Under the pieces are notes generated by a model. The model was not told the origin of the DNA, did no database searches, and saw only the letters and a program-made list of their open reading frames with translations. From contig OZ023211.1 in the NCBI GenBank assembly GCA_963995525.1, positions 52,480,228 through 52,544,227 on the forward strand: a stretch of 64,000 nt of DNA, written 5' to 3'. Numbering within the stretch: the stretch's first letter is position 1; each line of letters opens with the position of its first letter. The translations under genes were made by a program, and so were the position numbers. Below are positions 1 through 64,000 of this stretch, in pieces. The stretch is from Escarpia spicata. Lineage: Eukaryota; Annelida; Polychaeta; Sabellida; Siboglinidae.

Positions 1-45727
<45,727 letters not shown>

Positions 45728-51479: not shown

Positions 51480-52440
51480 CGATTGATGATCCACATTGCT
51501 AGGCCTTTTCATTGCAGACAAGTCAGCAGTAGTGTTTATTGCTTGGTGATCTACACTGCCAGCTGCTGCCGGCACGTCTACAGTTGGCGCGTCGTTTATT
51601 GCTTGGTGATGTACACTGCCTTCCGCTGCAGGCACGTCTACAGTTGGTGCGTCATTTATTGCTTGGTGATGTACACTGCCTCCTACTGCAGGCAGTCTAC
51701 AGTTGGTGCATCGTTTATTGCTTGGTGATGTACACTGCCTTCCGCTGCAGGCACGTCTACAGTTGGTGTGTCGTTTATTGCTTGGTGATGTACACTGCCT
51801 CCTGCTACAGGCAGTCTACAGTTGGTGCGTCATTTATTGCTTGGTGATGTACACTGCCTCCTACTGCAGGCAGTCTACAGTTGGTGCATCGTTTATTGCT
51901 TGGTGATGTACACTGCCTCCCGCTGCAGGCACGTCTACGTTGGTGCGTCGTTTATTGCTTGGTGATGTACACTGCCTCCCGCTGCAGGCAGTCTACAGTT
52001 GGTGCGTCATTTATTGCTTGGTGATGTACACTGCTTCCTGCTACAGGCAGTCTACAGTTGGTGCGTCGTTTATTGCTTGGTGATGTACACTGCCTCCCGC
52101 TGCAGGCACGTCTACGTTGGTGCGTCGTTTATTGCTTGGTGATGTACACTGCCTCCTGCTACAGGCAGTCTACAGTGGGTGCGTCATTTATTGCTTGGTG
52201 ATGTACACTGCCTCCTGCTACAGGCACGTCTACAGTTGGTGCGTCATTTATTGCTTGGTGATGTACACTGCCTCCTGCTACAGGCAGTCTACAGTTTGTG
52301 CGTCGTTTATTGCTTGGTGATGTACACTGCCTCCTGCTACAGGCAGTCTACAGTTGGTGCATCGTTTATTGCTTGGTGATGTACACTGCCTCCCACTGCA
52401 GGCTCGTCTACAGTTGGTGCGTCGTTTATTGCTTGGTTCT
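51480..52440 (-). repeat. 60-bp minisatellite next to the pogo-type transposase
   Basis: About 16 units of 59 or 60 bp containing TTTATTGCTTGGTGATGTAC and CTACAGTTGGTGCGTC. On the minus strand a 60-bp unit encodes a stop-free 20-residue repeat (SVHHQAINDAPTVDVPAA-like). 59-bp units (GCAGTC for GCACGTC) break that frame. It begins where similarity to the transposase ends, so it may be a decayed coding repeat. Confidence 0.85.
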
Positions 52441-52454
52441 CATCATTTACCACT

Positions 52455-53317
52455 TTACTTGTTGCAAGCTGTTGGTCTGTGACCACACTGGCATTGAACG
52501 TGAAAATTCCCGAAGTAAGCAACCTTAAACGGGCCAAAGACCCCGACATCCAACGGCTGTAGGAAGTGACTCGTATGGGCCGGGAGTAGGAAGAGGATCA
52601 CGTTGTGTTTGTGTGCCCATTCTATTAATGGCACATTGATGTGCGAACTGTGCCCGCCATACAACAACAAAAGGGGTTTGTCTTTGCTGGTAGACACATA
52701 CTTAAGAAAATGTTTACTCAAGTAAGCCTGGAAGATTTTACTTGTGGACCATCCACTGTCGGGCATAGTCCCTTGTGTTCCTGGCAGCGTGCCGTTCATT
52801 AACTCCTCAATCATCCGCTTTCCCTTGAATATTAAGAAGGGAGGCAAGCACTGTCTTATTGCATTTATACAGCTTATGACCGTGGTTGTTGCCGATATTG
52901 GTGAAACTACGGCCAACGATGTCAGACCTATTTCGGCCATTATCTTAGGCAGCACATGTTCCGTAGACACACCAGTTTCATCAACATGGAAAATCCTATG
53001 TGGTTTTCCCAACAAGTCATACTTCTGAAGTATGCTCAGTAACTCATTGTAATAATTATCTAACGTTTCCCTTGTTGCACTGCGTGCTCTAACCATAGAC
53101 AAGCCTTTTGGCTTGGTCATCTTAAGGTCTGGCCATCTCTTTAGCAAGCGATACACCCATATATCATTTGGTGGTGGCGTAAAGTTGTTACAGGCACACC
53201 ACATGTCCTTGCTGCCTTACGGACCGATACTCCGTCTTCTTTGCATATTTTATATGAATATTTTAGTTGGCCAGGGGTATAATCTCTGTAGGTAGCTAGT
53301 CTTTTTATGGTTTTCTG
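52455..53317 (-). pseudogene. Pogo/Tigger-type transposase, broken
   Basis: Cut-and-paste DDE transposase of the Tc1/mariner-pogo superfamily. The N-terminal psq-type helix-turn-helix (53317 down to about 53185: QKTIKRLATYRDYTPGQLKY and VSVRKAARTCGVPVTTLRHH) is out of frame with the rest, and about 50 residues are missing at the join. The DDE part (from 53204) has RIFHVDETGVST (first Asp) and LLPAHTSHFLQPLDVGVFGP. The second catalytic Asp in the usual LLYDGHSSH reads Gly (GGC, complement of 52656-52658). The C-terminus is cut off near 52520 at the minisatellite. Not functional. Confidence 0.85.
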
Positions 53318-55576: not shown

Positions 55577-57316
55577 GGTGAGCACGTTCTATATCACCTC
55601 AGAATGTGAATCGCTTTTCTACAAAACATAATTGATCACTTTCCGTGCTATACCAGCAATGCATGACTTCAAGCCACGCGTGTCACTACTACACTACACC
55701 ACTCTACAGTAATGTTGTCAGTCGCCCCTGGCTCGTGGTGAGCATGCCGTTCAACATCCGAGTGCATAGCCAGTCCCGCCCCCTTTCGGAAAGTGCCCTC
55801 ACTATGCCTTTTCCAGCTGGATATGTGGTCCTAATCACAAGCACAAATGGACATACCATAATGCATATGAATCAATTTGGAATTATGTACAAAAGCACAT
55901 CACAGCGAAGATAGGATGCGCGATTTCTAGTGTCTTTTATAAGATTTTGATTTGCCTGTTTATATTCGTAATATTATATATTCGTTAGAGATTTAGCACA
56001 TAGATATCTTACGGAACAATTTGATAATTGTTTGTGAAAACAACGAAAACGATTGCACGCACGATTTGTGCCCCTACCGTTATGTATTCCATGCTGAGAC
56101 AGGTCTTAAAAATCATTTTTTCTGATGCATTAAACACAACTGCAATTAAAACTAGGCGGCTAATCAGACAAAAACAGTTGTATGTGCAATGCTGTCATGT
56201 TTACTTTGATTCATACATAATTTGACCGTAAAATGGATAGGGATTGCGCTTACCGATCACCCCTGCTGGTTTTGTATTTACCTATCCGATCGACACTTAA
56301 CCGATCGCAAAAACACAACAAGCGATGACGTAGTACGCACAGCGCGTTAGGGACAGGGAATGGAATCAAGATCGGTATGCTTGCAGACATTCTCTATTGG
56401 CGTTTGCATTCTGTGAAATCATTATTCAACAGTAAAACGGTACGCACACTCACACGTTACTATAATGCACTCTGACTGACATTTTAAGTGCTAGTTTGTC
56501 GCATATAGAAGTTTTTTTTTTGGAAGTAGCCATGTGTACGGACAACGAATCCACCTTGTTTCGGCAATAAATAACATGTAGCATCTTTCGAGTTGCTTTT
56601 TCGGAACAAAATTGTTGGATTTCACGAAAGCACTACTACTAATCGTTTCGAATACAGATTCCTCACTTTGCACACACGGTTGAATTACCTGACCGACATT
56701 TTGCATTGGTTTCAATATTGATATGTAGCCAGTACACTCCACCGTGTATTTGGTAGAAATCGTGTTCCCCAGCGTTTTTCGTCGTAACAAATTTTTTTTT
56801 ATGGAATCCTGCATGCGTGAAAGATTGGTTTAGCATATGCTTTGCGGGCCGTGTATTGTGGCATATAATGTAAACATGTATGTTAATTCAAAGGTTGACG
56901 GAGATCACGCGCAATCTTTCGGTTGTGACGTAGGCAGACAGTGACGTACTCAGTCCGCCAATAAGAGTAAATACGTTAAGTTCATTGTTTATTGTTTCTG
57001 CTGATATATTACTACTACTGGTACGTTTAGTCACTTACATATATGTGGTATTTGCTACAGTGTATGTTATTGTGTTGTAGTTTCAAACGGTAAACCGTAT
57101 TAATCTTTTAGATGCATAGGCTCAACAAATGTATTTTATTTCCATTTACAGAATGGATGACCTCAGTGCTTCCTAGCAATTTCAAATGTTAACAGCACGT
57201 ACATGATTTACTACTATTTAAAAAAATCGTTGAAAGTTGATCATTCCAATTCTAACAAAGTAGCATCGAACGCGGCATCAAACTCATAGTCATACGGTCT
57301 GTTTGCATATTTTTCG
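55577..57316 (+). repeat. U1 tandem array unit A, U1 gene deleted
   Basis: Matches unit B (57317-59904) along its length, but 758 bp of B (57551-58308), including the whole U1 gene, are missing. The breakpoint at about 55807 lies at a shared ATGC (ctcactATGC / atttATGCC). Smaller indels account for the rest of the length difference. The left array border is at about 55577. Confidence 0.85.
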
Positions 57317-57744
57317 TATGAACACGTTCTATATCACCTCAGAATGTGAATCGCTTTTCTAACAAACATATAATTGATCAGTTTTCCGTGCTATACTAAT
57401 AATGCGTGACTTCAAGCCACGCGTGGCACTACTACACTACACCACTCTACAGTAATGTTGTCAGCCGCCCCTGGCTCGTGTTGAGCGAGCCGTTCAACAT
57501 CCGAGTGCATAGCCAGTCCCGCCCCCTTTCGGAAAATGCCCTCACTATGCTGTCTACCATTGAGCCGAGCAAGAAGCTGAACATGAAACTTGTTTTGTTG
57601 TTTTGTAATTTAAGAACTTACTGCTATTCCCTTGTAGACAACTAGTGAGCGTCATAATAATTACGCATTAATAATAGCTACACTTAAATTAACTATAACA
57701 AACGATATCAATAAAAAGAACTTTCAGATTCGCCCGTTAACGAG

Positions 57745-57806
57745 ACACCATATTTTCACCACAACGAGGCCGTACTATCGATGAAGGTAGGCGACTTGTA
57801 AAAAGC
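57745..57806 (+). promoter_or_regulatory. Putative U1 proximal promoter (PSE region)
   Basis: The 60 bp before U1 contain TTTTCACCACAACGAGGC at about -53 to -36, where animal snRNA genes carry the proximal sequence element bound by SNAPc. There is no TATA box at -25, as expected for a pol II snRNA promoter. Identical in unit C. The exact element is a guess by position. Confidence 0.4.
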
Positions 57807-57888
57807 ATACTTACCTGGCACAGGAGATACCTTGATCACCAAGGAGGTTCTCCCAGGGCGAGGCCTTTCCATTGCACCTCGGTTGGGC

Positions 57889-57923
<35 letters not shown>

Positions 57924-57970
57924 GGTGCGTAATTTTTGGTAGTGGGGGACTGCGTTCGCGCTATCCCCTT
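57807..57970 (+). ncRNA. U1: U1 spliceosomal snRNA, complete
   Basis: RNA of the U1 snRNP, which recognises 5' splice sites by pairing with its 5' end. It starts ATACTTACCTG, the exact splice-site recognition sequence. The SL I region has GATCACC, the SL II loop ATTGCAC (U1A site), and the Sm site AATTTTTGG lies at 57931-57939. The terminal stem-loop is GGGGGACTGCGTTCGCGC plus TATCCCC. About 164 nt, the canonical length, with no gaps against the general U1 pattern. The U1-70K loop, usually ATCACGA, reads ATCACCA here. It lies in a tandem unit and looks functional. Confidence 0.95.
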
Positions 57971-58149: not shown

Positions 58150-58970
58150 GCCCTCTTGCTATTAGAGAGTGTCTGCAAGCATACCGATCTCGATTCCCTT
58201 CCCTATCCCCAACGCGCTACGCAATCGGTGTCGATTGTTCGAGATAGGTAACCATCACGAGTTTCTGCATCACGGCGTTTCACTCGCCAGCGTATCGTAC
58301 ATTTATGCCTTTTCCAGCTAGATATGTGGTCCTAATCACAAGCTGAAATGGACAGACCATAATGCATCTGAAACAATTTGGAATTATGTACAAAAGCACA
58401 TCACACCGAAGATAGGATGCGCGGTTTTTAGTGTCTGTCATAAGATTTTGATTTGCCTGTTTATATTCGTAAGTCCTTCACCCGAGACTACTTTTCTAAC
58501 AGTTTTTTTGCACAAATTTAATGGAATGTGTGTTAGAGATTTAGCACATAGATATCTAAAGGAAGAATTTGATAATTGTTTGTGAAAACAACGAAAACGA
58601 TTGCACGCACGATTTGTGCCCCTACCGTTATGTATTCCATGCTGAGACAGGTCTTAAAAAATCATTTCTTCTGATGCATTAAACACAACTGCAATTAAAA
58701 CGAAGCGGCTAATCAGTCAAAAACAGTTGTATGTACAATGCTGTCGTAATGTTTACTTTGATTCATACATAATTTGACCGTAAAATGGATAGGGATTGCG
58801 CTTACCGATCACCCCTGCCGGTTACGTATTTACCTATCCGATCGACACTTAACCGATCGCATAAACACAACAAGCGATGACGTAGTACGCACAGCACGTT
58901 AGGGATAGGGAATGGAATCGAGATCGGTATGCTTGCAGACATTCTCTGTTAGCGTTTGCATTCTGTGAAA
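58150..58970. mobile_element. Fold-back structure downstream of U1
   Basis: Arms of roughly 70-100 bp: GTCTGCAAGCATACCGATCT near 58168 is the inverse of AGATCGGTATGCTTGCAGAC near 58921, and similarity continues inward through CGCGTT(G)GGGATAGGG. About 550 bp lie between. Unit A keeps only the right arm (56270-56400). It could be a non-autonomous transposon or an array-borne inverted repeat. Confidence 0.6.
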
Positions 58971-59904
58971 TCATTCTTCAACAGTAAAACGGTACGCACA
59001 CTCACACATTACTATAATGCACTCTGGCTGACATTTGTAAGTGCTAGTTTGTCGCATATAGAAGTTTTATTTTTGGAAGTAGCTATGTGTACGGACAACG
59101 ATTCCACCTTGTTTCGGCAATAAATAACATGTAGCATCTTTCGAGTTGCTTTTTCGGAACAAAATTGTTGGATTTCACGAAAGCACTACTGCTAATCGGT
59201 GACAAGACAAACATCAAAATGTACCGTTTCATTTCGAATCGAATACAGATTCCTCACTTTGCACACACGGTTGAATTACCTGACCGACATTTTGCATTGG
59301 TTTCAATATTGATATGTAGCCAGTACAATCCACCGTGTATTTGGTAGAAATCGTGTTCACCAGCGTTTTTCGTCGTAACAAATTTTTTTTAAATGGAATC
59401 CTGCATGCGTGAAAGATTGGTTTAGCATATGCTTTGCGGGCCGTGTATTGTGGCATATAATGTAAACATGTTAATTCAAAGGTTGACGGAGATCACGCGC
59501 AATCTTTCGGTTGTGACGTAGGCAAACAGTGATGTACTCAGTCCGCCAATAAGAGTAAATACGTTAAGTTCATTGTTTATTGTTTCTGCTGATATATTAC
59601 TACTACTGGTACGTTTAGTCACTTACATGTATGTGGTATTTACTAGAGTGTATGTTATTGTGTTGTACTTTCAATCGGTAAACCGTATTAATTCTTTTAA
59701 ATGCATAGTCTCAACAAATGTATTTTATTTCCATTTACAGAATGGATGACCTCAGTGCTTCCTAGCAATTTCAAATGTTAACAGCACGTACATGATTTAC
59801 TAATATTTAAAAAAATCGTTGAAAGTTAATCATTCCAATTCTAACAAAGTAGCATCGAACGCGGCATCAAACTCATAGTCATACGGTCTGTTTGCATATT
59901 TTTC

Positions 59905-60430
59905 GTATGAGCACGTTCTATATCACCTCAGAATGTGAATCGCTTTTCTAACAAACATAATTTATCAGTTTTCCGTGCTATACTAATAATGCGTGACTTC
60001 AAGCCACGCGTGGCACTACTACACTATACCACTCTACAGTAATGTTGTCAGCCGCCCCTGACTCGTGTTGAGCGTGCCGTTCAACATCCGAGTGCATAGC
60101 CAGTCCCGCCCCCTTTCGGAAAATGCCCTCACTATGCTGTCTACTATTGAGCCGAGCAAGAAGCTGAATATGAAACTTGTTTTGTTGTTTTGTAATTTAA
60201 GAAATTACTGCTATTCCCTTGTAGACAACTAGTGAGCGTCATAATAATTACGCATTAATAATAGCTACACTTAAATTAACTATAACAAACGATATCAATA
60301 AAAAGAACTTTCAGATTCGCCCGTTAACGAGACACCATATTTTCACCACAACGAGGCCGTACTATCGATGAAGGTAGGCGACTTGTAAAAAGCATACTTA
60401 CCTGGCACAGGAGATACCTTGATCACCAAG
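59905..60430 (+). repeat. U1 tandem array unit C, 5' part, cut by retrotransposon
   Basis: Nearly identical to the start of unit B up to U1 nucleotide 37, then interrupted by the non-LTR element. Confidence 0.9.
60394..60430 (+). pseudogene. U1: U1 snRNA, first 37 nt only
   Basis: ATACTTACCTGGCACAGGAG through GATCACCAAG is identical to the complete U1 copy. After ...CACCAAG the complete copy continues GAGGTTC, while this one switches to retrotransposon sequence. The rest of the gene would lie 3' of the element, outside the window. Confidence 0.95.
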
Positions 60431-60452
60431 TAAGTTAGAATATGAGCGGCGA

Positions 60453-61913
60453 ATGATGGTGGAGCTGGAAGATGGTTGGGAAGCGGTGCAGCGATGTTCT
60501 GTAGTTTTGACAGGCCCGTATGACGGAACATTCTATCTGCGAGATGATTTCTTGTCACCAATAGAACAAATCGTGGGAAAGGTGAGCGAAAATGTGCTAG
60601 CCTTCGGGCCGTTAAACAAAAGTAATGTGTGGCACTTGGCCGCCAAGTCTGAGGAAGCGAAAGATGCCTTTCTAAAGGCAGGGATTATGAGGGTGAAAGG
60701 GAAACTTTTCAAGATAAAATCAGCAGATAATAGGCAGTTTACAGCCCGAATCCACTGGGCCCCGCCCTTCGTATCTAATGAGGCCGTCGTAGAGCAGCTC
60801 GACGATTTTTGTCGTATAACTTCTATCAATTATGAGAAATCGTCTAGTGTAGGTTTTGAAAATGTGGCAACAGGAGTAAGGTCTGTGTTAATGATCGGTG
60901 ACAAACGTGATATCCCTCATATCATTGTAATAACAAATCCGACTACCTATCAGAAATACGAATGTTTGGTGACTATAACGGGCAGACCGCCACTTTGTTT
61001 AAAATGTAGGAAAACAGGTCACTATCGCAGAGAGTGCACTACACCCTTCTGTCGTCACCATGGTGAGTATGGCCACACGACAGAGGGGTGTAGTGAGAAG
61101 AAGGCAACATACGCCAAAGCTACCCGTGAGAAGAAAAGTGGAGAGGGAGAAGACAAAGACGGAATGACAGAAGACATGTGTGTAGACGAAGAGACCGTTG
61201 CAGAAACCCCTTCACAAGAAAGAACAGAAGCTGAGACACCAATGAAAAATGCGACAGTCAACGCCCAGTTACGCAACAACAGAGACGGCACGCACGGTAG
61301 TCTGACGGCAGCACCGGCGGAGACAAAGGCGACAAACGATGTAAGCACCGCCTGTGTGGGAGACCACCTACAAGGCGCGGTCAATTCCGAACAAAGAATA
61401 GGAACACTAACCGAACAAATGCGTTCAGCATTAAATGGTTTGTCTAAGGAGGAAAGAAAAGCGTGGGTGGTTGCCGCGGAAGGCATCCAAAGACTAGATT
61501 TAGACAGACAAGCTGAACTGAGAAGGAATAGAAATAACATTGTAAGACCAGTACCAAAGGAGTCTGAACTGGAGAAGGGAAACTCATATAGCCCACCAGT
61601 TCAGGAGATTGAAGAAAATGTCAAGTCACCAGAGAAGGGAGGGGGAAGTAGCCCACAGCGGGAAGACTCAGCACCGGTGTCGGGAGACATGTTCTCAAAT
61701 GATAGTGCGGAGAGCATGTCTCCCGATGACGGGGAGGAGAAATGGGAGATAGTGACGAGGAAAAAGAGATCACGGAGTGTTTCCCCTCCGCCCTCGCCAG
61801 CGAGCCCTTCACTGGGCAGACTGGTGATAATGGAAGGAGAGTCCGATCATAACTCGGGTTATGATTCGGAATCTGGCATCACAAATAAAAATAAATGTGG
61901 CACTGAAGACTAA
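60453..61913 (+). CDS. ORF1 protein of the U1-inserted retrotransposon
   Basis: 486 residues, nucleic-acid-binding chaperone type. An N-terminal region of about 170 residues precedes a CCHC knuckle CLKCRKTGHYRREC (residues 182-195). A second, CRHHGEYGHTTEGC (from about residue 200), has His for the second Cys. The C-terminal half is charged, Ser/Pro-rich and low-complexity, ending in a basic RKKRSRSVSPPPSP patch. The start chosen is the first ATG of ATGATGG. A 4-codon upstream frame (60442-60456) ends in a TGA overlapping it. The frame is also open back to 60423, so a slight 5' truncation cannot be excluded. No stops, so the copy is young. Confidence 0.85.
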   Translation: MMVELEDGWEAVQRCSVVLTGPYDGTFYLRDDFLSPIEQIVGKVSENVLAFGPLNKSNVWHLAAKSEEAKDAFLKAGIMRVKGKLFKIKSADNRQFTARIHWAPPFVSNEAVVEQLDDFCRITSINYEKSSSVGFENVATGVRSVLMIGDKRDIPHIIVITNPTTYQKYECLVTITGRPPLCLKCRKTGHYRRECTTPFCRHHGEYGHTTEGCSEKKATYAKATREKKSGEGEDKDGMTEDMCVDEETVAETPSQERTEAETPMKNATVNAQLRNNRDGTHGSLTAAPAETKATNDVSTACVGDHLQGAVNSEQRIGTLTEQMRSALNGLSKEERKAWVVAAEGIQRLDLDRQAELRRNRNNIVRPVPKESELEKGNSYSPPVQEIEENVKSPEKGGGSSPQREDSAPVSGDMFSNDSAESMSPDDGEEKWEIVTRKKRSRSVSPPPSPASPSLGRLVIMEGESDHNSGYDSESGITNKNKCGTED

Positions 61914-61942
61914 AGAGAAAAATAAAACTAGAACAAACTTAA

Positions 61943-64000
61943 ATGAGTAAAAAATTACGATTTTCGTCTTTAAATTGCAGGGGTCTCAAAGAATTTCGGA
62001 AGAGAGAAAAAATTATTCAATATTTAAAAACTAATAAAGTAGACATTTGTTTATTACAAGAAACACATTATTGTAATACCTTCTTTAGTAAAAAATGGGG
62101 AGGAAAAATGTATTGGTCATTTGGATCACCAAATTCAAAAGGGGTAGCCATTTGGTTTAGAACGAATTTAAAATTTGAAATTAAATCAATAGAAAGAGAT
62201 ACTGAAGGAAGATTACTATGTTTACTGATAATAATTAATGGCCAAACAATACAATTGTTAAATATTTACGCACCAACAATTCCCGTCAATCGTAAAGAAT
62301 TTTTTACTTCCTTAAATCAGTACCTAGATGCCAAATTCCCCATAATATTAGGAGGAGATTTTAACTGTGTAATTGATCTAAAATTCGACAAGAGTGGAGG
62401 GAATGACATGAACGGAGCACGGGGTCGTAATGTCCTATTACCTATTTGTAGTAAAAATAAACTACAAGATGCTTTTAGAAAATTGTACCCTCATAAAAAA
62501 GAATATTCCTGGGAAAACTCAAACGCAATACAATGCAGACTTGACCGATTCTATGTATCAAACACACTTTTAAAAGGAGTAATTTCAGTACAACATGATT
62601 CATTAGGCAATAATATTTCAGATCACAAGATGGTGTCAGTATATGTTACTTTGGGTGATGTTCTGCAAGAGACTGGACCAGGGTATTGGAAATGTAATAC
62701 GAAAACTTTAGTAGATCCATACTTTCAAATTGATTTTAAATATTTATGGGAAACATTAGAAACAAGTACTCAACATAACACCGAGTGGTGGGAAGAATGC
62801 AAAATACAATTCCAGCGATTAATAATGTTCCATTCTATGCGATTATCAAGAGTTAAACAATCTGAATTACAAGATGCAAAACAAGAATTTAAAAGACTAA
62901 ACCGACTCGGAAACAAACACGGATTTTCACAAGATTTACAACAACAAATTAAAAAAGCACAAAGCTTGGTAGATTCTATAAATAATACATTGTTAGAAGG
63001 TTCAAAAATAAGATCCAAAGTTAAATATTTAGAAAATGATGAAAAACCTACAACTTTTTTCTTACGTAAAGAGAAAAAGTCGGCCACAGAGAAATATATT
63101 AAATTCTTAAAAAATGATAAAGGAGAAATACTTACTACTAATGACGAAATAAAAGAAGAATGTAGACAATTTTATGAAAAATTGTATAGAAGAAAAGATA
63201 CTGACGTTTCCCTAAATGAGTATTTTCTTAAAGACATTCCAAAACTGAGTGAAGAGAGTTCACAACTATGTGAAGGACAAATAACGTTGGAAGAATGTAA
63301 GAAAGCAATAAAACTAATGGAGAATAATAAATCCCCAGGACCGGATGGATTGCCAAAAGAATTTTACACTTTCGCTTTTCCTTACATTGGTAAATCGTTT
63401 GTAAATCTAATAAATCGTTGTTGGTTAGAAGGAAAACTTCCTCCTTCCCAAAGGCAGTGTTTAATAACACTAATATGTAAAGACAAAGAAAACGCAGAAA
63501 GTTTGACAAATTGGCGCCCTATTTCTTTATTAAACTGTGATTACAAAATTTTTTCTAAAGCTCTTACTTCAAGATTAAAGACAGTAATGAATGAAATAGT
63601 ACATCCAGACCAAACATGTTCTATTCCAGGGCGTACCATCCAAGATAACATACATCTGATTCGAAACATTATATAATATATAAATGGGAAGAATATGGCA
63701 GGTGCCATTATATCATTAGATCAATCTAAAGCATTTGATAGAGTATCACATACATATTTATTTACTGTACTAGAAGCTTTTGGGTTTGGAACGCAATTCA
63801 TTTCCTTGGTCAAACTATTATATGCTCACGTGTCAAGTCAAATATTAGTAAACGGATTCATTACAGAGTCCTTACCAGTTCAATGTAGTGTACGACAAGG
63901 ATGCAGCTTGTCACCTTTGTTGTATGTGCTATGTATAGAACCTTTTGCTCAACGCATACGTAATGATAACATGATCAAAGGAGTCCCACTTCCTGGGACA
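61943..64000 (+). pseudogene. ORF2 of the U1-inserted retrotransposon: endonuclease and reverse transcriptase, one stop
   Basis: The N-terminal APE-type endonuclease has LNCRGL, LLQETHY (catalytic Glu), LNIYAP, GGDFN and SDHKMV (catalytic His). A linker helix region is followed by RT motifs NNKSPGPDGLPKEFY, NWRPISLLNCDYKIFSKAL and PDQTCSIPGRTIQDN (Ser for the usual Phe). After NII at 63671-63673 a TAA stop (63674-63676) interrupts. The same frame continues with YINGKNMAGAIISLDQSKAF (first RT Asp) and VRQGCSLSPLLYVLCIEPF to the window edge. Apart from that stop the frame is intact. The YADD box and the C-terminal domain are outside the window. Confidence 0.9.

What the first reader, a model, noticed from the sequence alone, without database searches (positions are those of the whole stretch)
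60394..64000. A Tx1/L1-like retrotransposon sits inside a U1 snRNA gene: candidate U1-targeted element
Seen: U1 is identical to the complete neighbour copy up to nucleotide 37 (ending CACCAAG). It then changes abruptly to a non-LTR element in the same orientation whose ORF1 starts 23 bp later. Known: members of the Tx1/L1 group and other non-LTR groups target multicopy RNA genes (5S rRNA, U2 snRNA). I do not recall one described for U1. Inference: a tandem U1 array is a renewable target, the very short leader suggests reliance on the U1 promoter, and sense orientation would allow co-transcription. One copy cannot distinguish targeting from chance.
Basis: partly seen in the sequence, partly recalled or inferred. 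Interest (0 to 1): 0.92.

Follow-up and report, generated by a model that had tools for sequence, protein, structure and literature searches.

The report
LINE retrotransposon that targets U1 genes
A LINE-type jumping gene in this genome inserts at one exact position inside the genes for U1, a core RNA of the splicing machinery, and close relatives in the same genome sit in the genes of two other splicing RNAs, U2 and U5.

Summary
The window holds the first 3,570 bp of a 6,903-bp non-LTR element. Beyond the window it ends in an A-tail and U1 resumes at nt 26, not 38: nt 26-37 (TTGATCACCAAG) is a 12-bp target-site duplication. Three copies with identical junctions sit in one U1 array beside 69 uninterrupted sites. 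The two closest differ 0.20% in coding sequence but 0.77% in U1 flanks and 1.19% in the 3'UTR, which argues for separate insertions; the same rate test is not significant for the window copy. A subfamily about 20% divergent shows the same 12 bp at four tandem A-tail/element junctions. Specificity is not absolute: of nine family 3' ends, three are in U1, four in a U5 array, two at sites without snRNA. Copies in U5 begin at U1 nt 1-3, suggesting RNA made from the U1 promoter. Sister families sit in U2 and U5. No U1- or U5-targeted non-LTR element appeared in nine literature searches; a 2015 paper lists only Dada DNA transposons for U1. Tx1-clade membership could not be tested by a tree.

The parts
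57807..57970 (+). Complete neighbouring U1 snRNA gene (empty target site)
   Evidence: Rfam RF00003, 158.1 bits
57807..60393 (+). One 2,587-bp U1 tandem-repeat unit (U1 plus spacer with the upstream promoter region)
   Evidence: self-comparison 55803-57849 vs 58304-60436, 92.4% over 2,139 bp
60394..60430 (+). U1 nt 1-37, left flank of the insertion
   Evidence: identical to 57807-57843
60419..60430 (+). Left copy of the 12-bp target-site duplication TTGATCACCAAG (U1 nt 26-37); the right copy lies outside the window and carries one mismatch (TTGAGCACCAAG)
60431..64000 (+). First 3,570 bp of a 6,903-bp non-LTR retrotransposon; the remaining 3,333 bp, including the A-tail, lie beyond the window
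60431..60452 (+). 22-nt 5' leader
60453..61913 (+). ORF1, 486 aa, one weak CCHC zinc knuckle (residues 182-196)
   Evidence: Pfam PF00098 E 0.0065, below its gathering score
61943..63676 (+). ORF2 first part: APE-type endonuclease and start of the RT, ended by an in-frame stop
   Evidence: Pfam PF03372 2.7e-15, PF00078 1.3e-8; PDB match to LINE-1 ORF2
63677..64000 (+). Continuation of the RT domain in the same frame
   Evidence: PF00078 7.1e-14

Best explanation
It is a copy of a U1-gene-targeted non-LTR (LINE) retrotransposon. Shown: a 6.9-kb element with ORF1 (486 aa), ORF2 (endonuclease, reverse transcriptase, zf-RVT; 1,161 aa in copies with an open frame), a 1.94-kb 3'UTR and an A-tail sits in the sense direction in three U1 genes of one array, flanked by a duplication of U1 nt 26-37. 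Inferred: the ORF2 endonuclease nicks the bottom strand of U1 between nt 25 and 26, the A-tailed RNA is reverse-transcribed from that end (target-primed reverse transcription), and the top strand is cut after nt 37, giving the 12-bp duplication. Inferred with support: the RNA is made from the U1 promoter, starting at U1 +1, so it carries U1 nt 1-37 followed by the 22-nt leader and ORF1. Copies found in a U5 array begin at U1 nt 1-3, as expected if such a chimeric RNA was inserted there. The multicopy U1 array gives a renewable, low-harm target.
For: Six exact U1-interrupted-after-nt-37 sites genome-wide, all this family, reversed-pattern control 0, against 69 uninterrupted exact sites, all in the C8 array. 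A-tail then U1 nt 26-164 in the three C8 copies. L011 vs L012: coding 10/4941 substitutions, U1 flanks 22/2849 (Fisher P 0.0003), 3'UTR 23/1939 (P 8e-7): coding constraint, hence separate retrotransposition, not passive duplication. Synonymous/nonsynonymous counts depart from neutrality for window copy vs L012 (27/30, P 0.0003-0.0025) and L011 vs L012 (7/2, P 0.0015-0.0034). Divergent subfamily: the exact 12 bp between an A-tail and an element start at four places, all on C8, control 0. U1 nt 1-37 leader on the three U5-array copies with one shared 5' junction, and U1 nt 2-40 (94.9%) on a different family (C) in U5. Sister family in U2 with the same anatomy: U2 nt 1-61, 23-nt leader, ORF1 55.6% identical over 239 aligned positions. 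One fetched copy other than the window's has both frames open.
Against: For the window copy against L011 or L012, coding, flank and 3'UTR divergence are alike (1.2-1.4%, Fisher P 0.47-0.75), so array duplication of that copy is not excluded by rates. The six non-window copies are not six events: the three C2 copies share one 5' junction, and three of the four tandem junctions share one 5' deletion. Tandem element-TSD-element junctions could also come from unequal crossing-over. Of nine family 3' ends at 92% or more, four are in the U5 array and two are at sites without snRNA. The C6 29.0-Mb copy lacks a U1 leader, so it gives no sign of a U1-initiated RNA. No RNA or biochemical data.
Confidence: 0.88

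Rival explanations
1. Chance landing: a dispersed L1/Tx1-type element inserted once in a U1 gene, and array turnover multiplied that one event to three copies.
For: Window copy vs L011/L012 shows equal coding and flank divergence. Two of nine family 3' ends lie at sites without snRNA.
Against: 69 intact sites in 1.06 Gb make one exact-site hit about 7e-8 per random insertion (my arithmetic). L011 and L012 show coding constraint relative to their flanks. The divergent subfamily carries the same 12 bp, and sister families lie in U2 and U5.
Confidence: 0.06
2. snRNA-targeted generalist: the family does not recognise U1 in particular but inserts into several spliceosomal snRNA arrays (U1 and U5 for this family), through open chromatin or shared sequence features.
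For: Four of nine family 3' ends are in the U5 array. Three of those four abut U5 at the same place (nt 30-33) with at least two different 5' junctions. U2- and U5-flanked sisters.
Against: Junctions are nucleotide-precise, and the U1, U2 and U5 target sequences show no convincing shared motif (only a GAT close to each bottom-strand nick, by eye). Clean flanking duplications were seen for this family only in U1.
Confidence: 0.3
3. RNA template-switch chimera: reverse transcriptase jumped from element RNA to U1 snRNA, as described for LINE-1/U6 chimeras (recalled), so there was no insertion into a U1 gene.
For: U1 sequence abuts the 5' end of the element.
Against: In the window the U1 part has more than 2 kb of untranscribed U1-repeat sequence upstream and U1 resumes downstream. 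A jump would also join the 3' end of U1, not nt 37. It stays possible for how copies in U5 gained U1 nt 1-37.
Confidence: 0.02
4. Assembly artefact joining a U1 array to an element.
For: Tandem arrays are hard to assemble; no reads were available.
Against: Three separate loci with the same left and right junctions, A-tail and 12-bp duplication, and a matching pattern in U2.
Confidence: 0.02

Closest known systems
Keno (Tx1 clade, U2 snRNA genes, animals)
   Same: APE-type endonuclease, insertion inside a spliceosomal snRNA gene. In this genome a sister family (ORF1 55.6% identical) lies in U2, its 3' flank starting at U2 nt 36/37 (GTATCTGTTC), close to the nt-39 boundary that PMC4640811 gives for Utopia and calls identical to Keno's.
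   Different: The window family sits in U1 at nt 25/26-37. No Keno protein was available for comparison; the Kojima and Fujiwara 2004 paper was not held.
Utopia (U2 snRNA genes; PMC4640811, passages and section 6 seen)
   Same: snRNA-gene target, precise 3' and variable 5' boundaries, tandem insertions, TSD in some families.
   Different: Utopia has a restriction-like endonuclease and targets U2; here the endonuclease is APE-type.
Dada-U1A_DR / Dada-U1B_DR (DNA transposons in zebrafish U1 genes; PMC3706591, passages seen)
   Same: Same target gene, U1.
   Different: DDE transposase element with 6-bp TSD GCGAAT/GCGAAC; the corresponding GCGATT in this U1 is at nt 91, far from nt 26-37.
Tx1L, Mutsu (5S rRNA), Dewa (tRNA-Leu spacer): other target-specific elements named in PMC3706591 and PMC8869645
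   Same: Target-specific non-LTR strategy on multicopy RNA genes.

Membership tests
Target-specific non-LTR retrotransposon | Endonuclease and reverse transcriptase in ORF2 | tested here: met
   PF03372 1.7e-14, PF00078 4.5e-36, zf-RVT 9.5e-11 in L012 ORF2; YADD at residue 699 and endonuclease motifs present (motif meaning recalled)
Target-specific non-LTR retrotransposon | 3' tail and target-site duplication (TPRT signature) | tested here: met
   A-tail and 12-bp duplication in three U1 copies, one of which has 1 mismatch
Target-specific non-LTR retrotransposon | Repeated insertion at the same nucleotide of a repeated gene | tested here: met
   Three U1 genes plus four tandem junctions of the divergent subfamily; not exclusive: 2 of 9 3' ends outside snRNA arrays
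Tx1 clade | APE-type endonuclease, not restriction-like | tested here: met
Tx1 clade | RT phylogeny within Tx1 | not testable with these tools
   No Tx1 reference proteins held; the protein database was switched off. PDB gives only L1 and R2 relatives
Tx1 clade | ORF1 with CCHC zinc knuckles (recalled) | tested here: inconclusive
   One weak zf-CCHC, E 0.0065, below the gathering score
Keno | Insertion in U2 snRNA genes | tested here: not met
   Window family is in U1/U5; a sister family in the same genome is in U2
Utopia | Restriction-like endonuclease, U2 target | tested here: not met
   APE-type endonuclease
Dada DNA transposon | DDE transposase, 6-7 bp TSD | tested here: not met
   EN-RT proteins, 12-bp TSD at another U1 position

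The most novel reading that the evidence does not exclude
One LINE lineage has radiated over the spliceosomal snRNA genes of a single genome (U1, U2 and U5), using each snRNA gene's promoter to make its RNA. The chimeric U1-leader RNA lets it cross from one snRNA array to another, so target switching can be read directly from the junctions.
Probability: 0.5. Interest if true: 0.85.

Novelty: new variant of a known kind. Interest (0 to 1): 0.75.

Why it matters
U1 would be a new target gene for non-LTR retrotransposons. [quoted passage not shown] The target, U1 nt 26-37, lies in stem-loop I, one of the most conserved parts of the gene (recalled), so its endonuclease would be a candidate for studying site-specific insertion. 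U1-, U2- and U5-associated sister families in one genome make the evolution of target choice directly testable. Copies that start at the U1 transcription start give rare sequence evidence that a LINE uses its target's promoter.

Tried and rejected
Splice-site idea: the junction makes CAAG|TAAGT, a 5' splice-site-like GTAAGT, in the six U1-leader copies of family A. The divergent subfamily has CAAG|AGAGT instead, so it is not conserved and I dropped it.

Shared GTTCT motif in U1 and U2 at equal distance from the cut: this assumed U1 resumes at nt 38. It resumes at nt 26, so the idea fell.

Relatives elsewhere: ORF2 found nothing in viral contigs, genome contigs (15 pattern matches, none confirmed), plasmids or phages. 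A U1 pattern found 0 in viral contigs and 1 in genome contigs, which is bacterial and not U1 by Rfam. A U2 pattern found 0.

C6 copy: searched for an RNA gene at its flanks; no Rfam match, no tRNA. It lies between a Gypsy-like protease stretch (read by eye) and a 614-bp repeat that looks like its LTR.

ORF1 genome-wide tblastn (for a full count of sister families and their 5' flanks) did not complete. The host was not identified.
Full report
OBSERVATION. The window ends inside a non-LTR retrotransposon that interrupts a U1 snRNA gene. U1 is complete at 57807-57970. A second copy begins at 60394 and is identical through nt 37; more than 2 kb upstream it belongs to the same tandem repeat. The element starts at 60431 with a 22-nt leader, ORF1 (60453-61913) and ORF2 (from 61943). 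ORF2 matches LINE-1 ORF2 in the PDB (E 1.5e-47) and the Pfam endonuclease and RT models. This copy has an in-frame stop at 63674-63676.

THE OTHER SIDE. The window is G000:C8:52480228-52544227 of a 1.06-Gb assembly. Reading on, the window copy is 6,903 bp long and ends in AATAAACATTTAAAG plus an A-tail; then U1 nt 26-164 follows. Nt 26-37, TTGATCACCAAG, is therefore present on both sides (one mismatch on the right in this copy). Two more copies in the same array (L011, L012; 6,938 and 6,942 bp) have the same left junction and exact 12-bp duplications.

HOW MANY SITES. An exact search for U1 interrupted after nt 37 found six places, none on the reverse strand and none for the reversed control: three in the C8 U1 array, three on C2. 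Uninterrupted sites number 69, all in the C8 array, so 3 of 72 exact array sites are interrupted. The Rfam U1 search scored 42 U1 genes, 37 of them in this array (a lower bound); the five outside it did not match the exact 31-base pattern.

DUPLICATION OR REPEATED INSERTION. L011 and L012 differ at 10 of 4,941 coding positions, 22 of 2,849 flank positions and 23 of 1,939 3'UTR positions (Fisher P 0.0003 for coding vs flank, 8e-7 for coding vs 3'UTR). Passive duplication would not spare the coding part, so they look like separate retrotranspositions. For the window copy against L012 the rates are alike (58/4929, 36/2833, 27/1919; P 0.75 and 0.47), but synonymous and nonsynonymous changes (27 and 30) depart from neutrality (P 0.0003-0.0025 for transition fractions 0.5-0.7). 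Gene conversion in the array could blur all of this.

A SECOND SUBFAMILY AT THE SAME SITE. On the minus strand of C8, just past the array, copies at about 80-82% identity (up to 89% in an ORF2 stretch) each follow an A-tail plus the exact TTGATCACCAAG. Four such junctions exist genome-wide, control 0. Three share a 5' deletion (L018-L020), so they may be two events, and unequal crossing-over can make such tandems. The region carries U1-repeat remnants at 87-88%.

WHERE ELSE THE FAMILY GOES. A search with the last 450 bp gave 42 rows; I read the 30 loci returned. Nine 3' ends are at 92% identity or more: three followed by U1, four in the U5 array on C2, two on C6 without snRNA. The rest are sister elements, some not beside snRNA genes (for example L045, L050).

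U5. The C2 array holds 44 of the 47 U5 matches scored, period 2,156 bp. Three family-A copies there start with U1 nt 1-37 (one mismatch) at one shared junction in the U5 spacer, with 1-2 nt of ambiguity. Three of the four 3' ends abut U5 at nt 30-33; L040 abuts it near nt 93. L038 is a 5'-truncated copy with another 5' flank, 117 bp upstream of U5, so at least two events share the U5 3' junction. Family B has three 3' ends followed by U5 from nt 42-45; its one 5' end read follows U5 nt 39. Its ORF2 is 59.9% identical to family A. Family C (ORF1 42.1% identical) follows U5 nt 30-43 and itself starts with U1 nt 2-40 (94.9%). Family C-like copies on C8 are joined to U1 promoter remnants about 19 bp before U1 nt 1.

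U2. Five distinct sister copies end in an A-tail followed by U2 from nt 36/37 (L043, L044, L054, L055, L064); one more could not be read. L064 also shows U2 nt 1-61, a 23-nt leader and an ORF1 55.6% identical to family A, so that family appears to duplicate about 25 bp of U2.

MECHANISM. Shown: precise junctions, A-tail, duplications, coding constraint, open frames in at least one copy, endonuclease and RT domains. Inferred: bottom-strand nick at U1 25/26, reverse transcription primed there, top-strand cut after nt 37. Inferred with support: RNA starts at the U1 +1 site. Two families outside U1 genes begin at U1 nt 1-3. Against it, the C6 29.0-Mb copy starts at element nt 3 with no U1 leader. 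The C2 junctions could also reflect template switching or recombination.

LITERATURE. Nine searches of the open PMC library listed no U1- or U5-targeted non-LTR retrotransposon; Repbase and subscription journals were not searchable. PMC4640811 (passages and section 6; [quoted passage not shown] PMC3706591 (passages) describes Dada-U1 at another U1 site. PMC8869645 was seen as passages.

VERDICT. A real, recurrent, U1-gene-targeted LINE family, not strictly confined to U1, within a group of relatives beside U1, U2 and U5 genes. New target for a known strategy. Clade membership in Tx1 is likely from the APE endonuclease and the U2 sister, but untested by tree.

Noticed in passing
L032 788-7735; L047, L048, L051 (C2 U5 array): Family B, a sister LINE whose three 3' ends are followed by U5 from nt 42-45: a candidate U5-targeted element. 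The copy in L032 has ORF2 stops.
   Followed up: partly
L038 1958-3450 (C2): Family C: U5 nt 30-43, then U1 nt 2-40, then an element with a different ORF1, i.e. a U1-led element inside a U5 gene. Its 3' end was not read.
   Followed up: partly
L064, L054, L055, L043, L044: U2-associated sister family with U2 nt 1-61 on the left and nt 36/37 onward on the right (about 25-bp duplication) and a 23-nt leader.
   Followed up: partly
window 60425-60437: The junction creates GTAAGT, a 5' splice-site-like hexamer complementary to the U1 5' end; present in the six U1-leader copies, absent in the divergent subfamily.
   Followed up: yes
window 8668-12174 (+): ORFs that read by eye like a DIRS/Ngaro-type element (RT-like stretch and tyrosine-recombinase-like stretch); no domain search was run.
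   Followed up: no
window 52455-53216 (-): ORF that reads by eye like a pogo/Tigger-type DDE transposase; no domain search was run.
   Followed up: no
window 15918-16984, 26383-26969, 36397-36945, 40598-41531, 44601-45303, 51534-52437: Many minisatellite-like tandem repeats, several read as long open frames on both strands.
   Followed up: no
L012 (3'UTR, 1,944 bp): Long 3'UTR with a 110-codon open frame that is kept in several copies but in different frames relative to ORF2.
   Followed up: no
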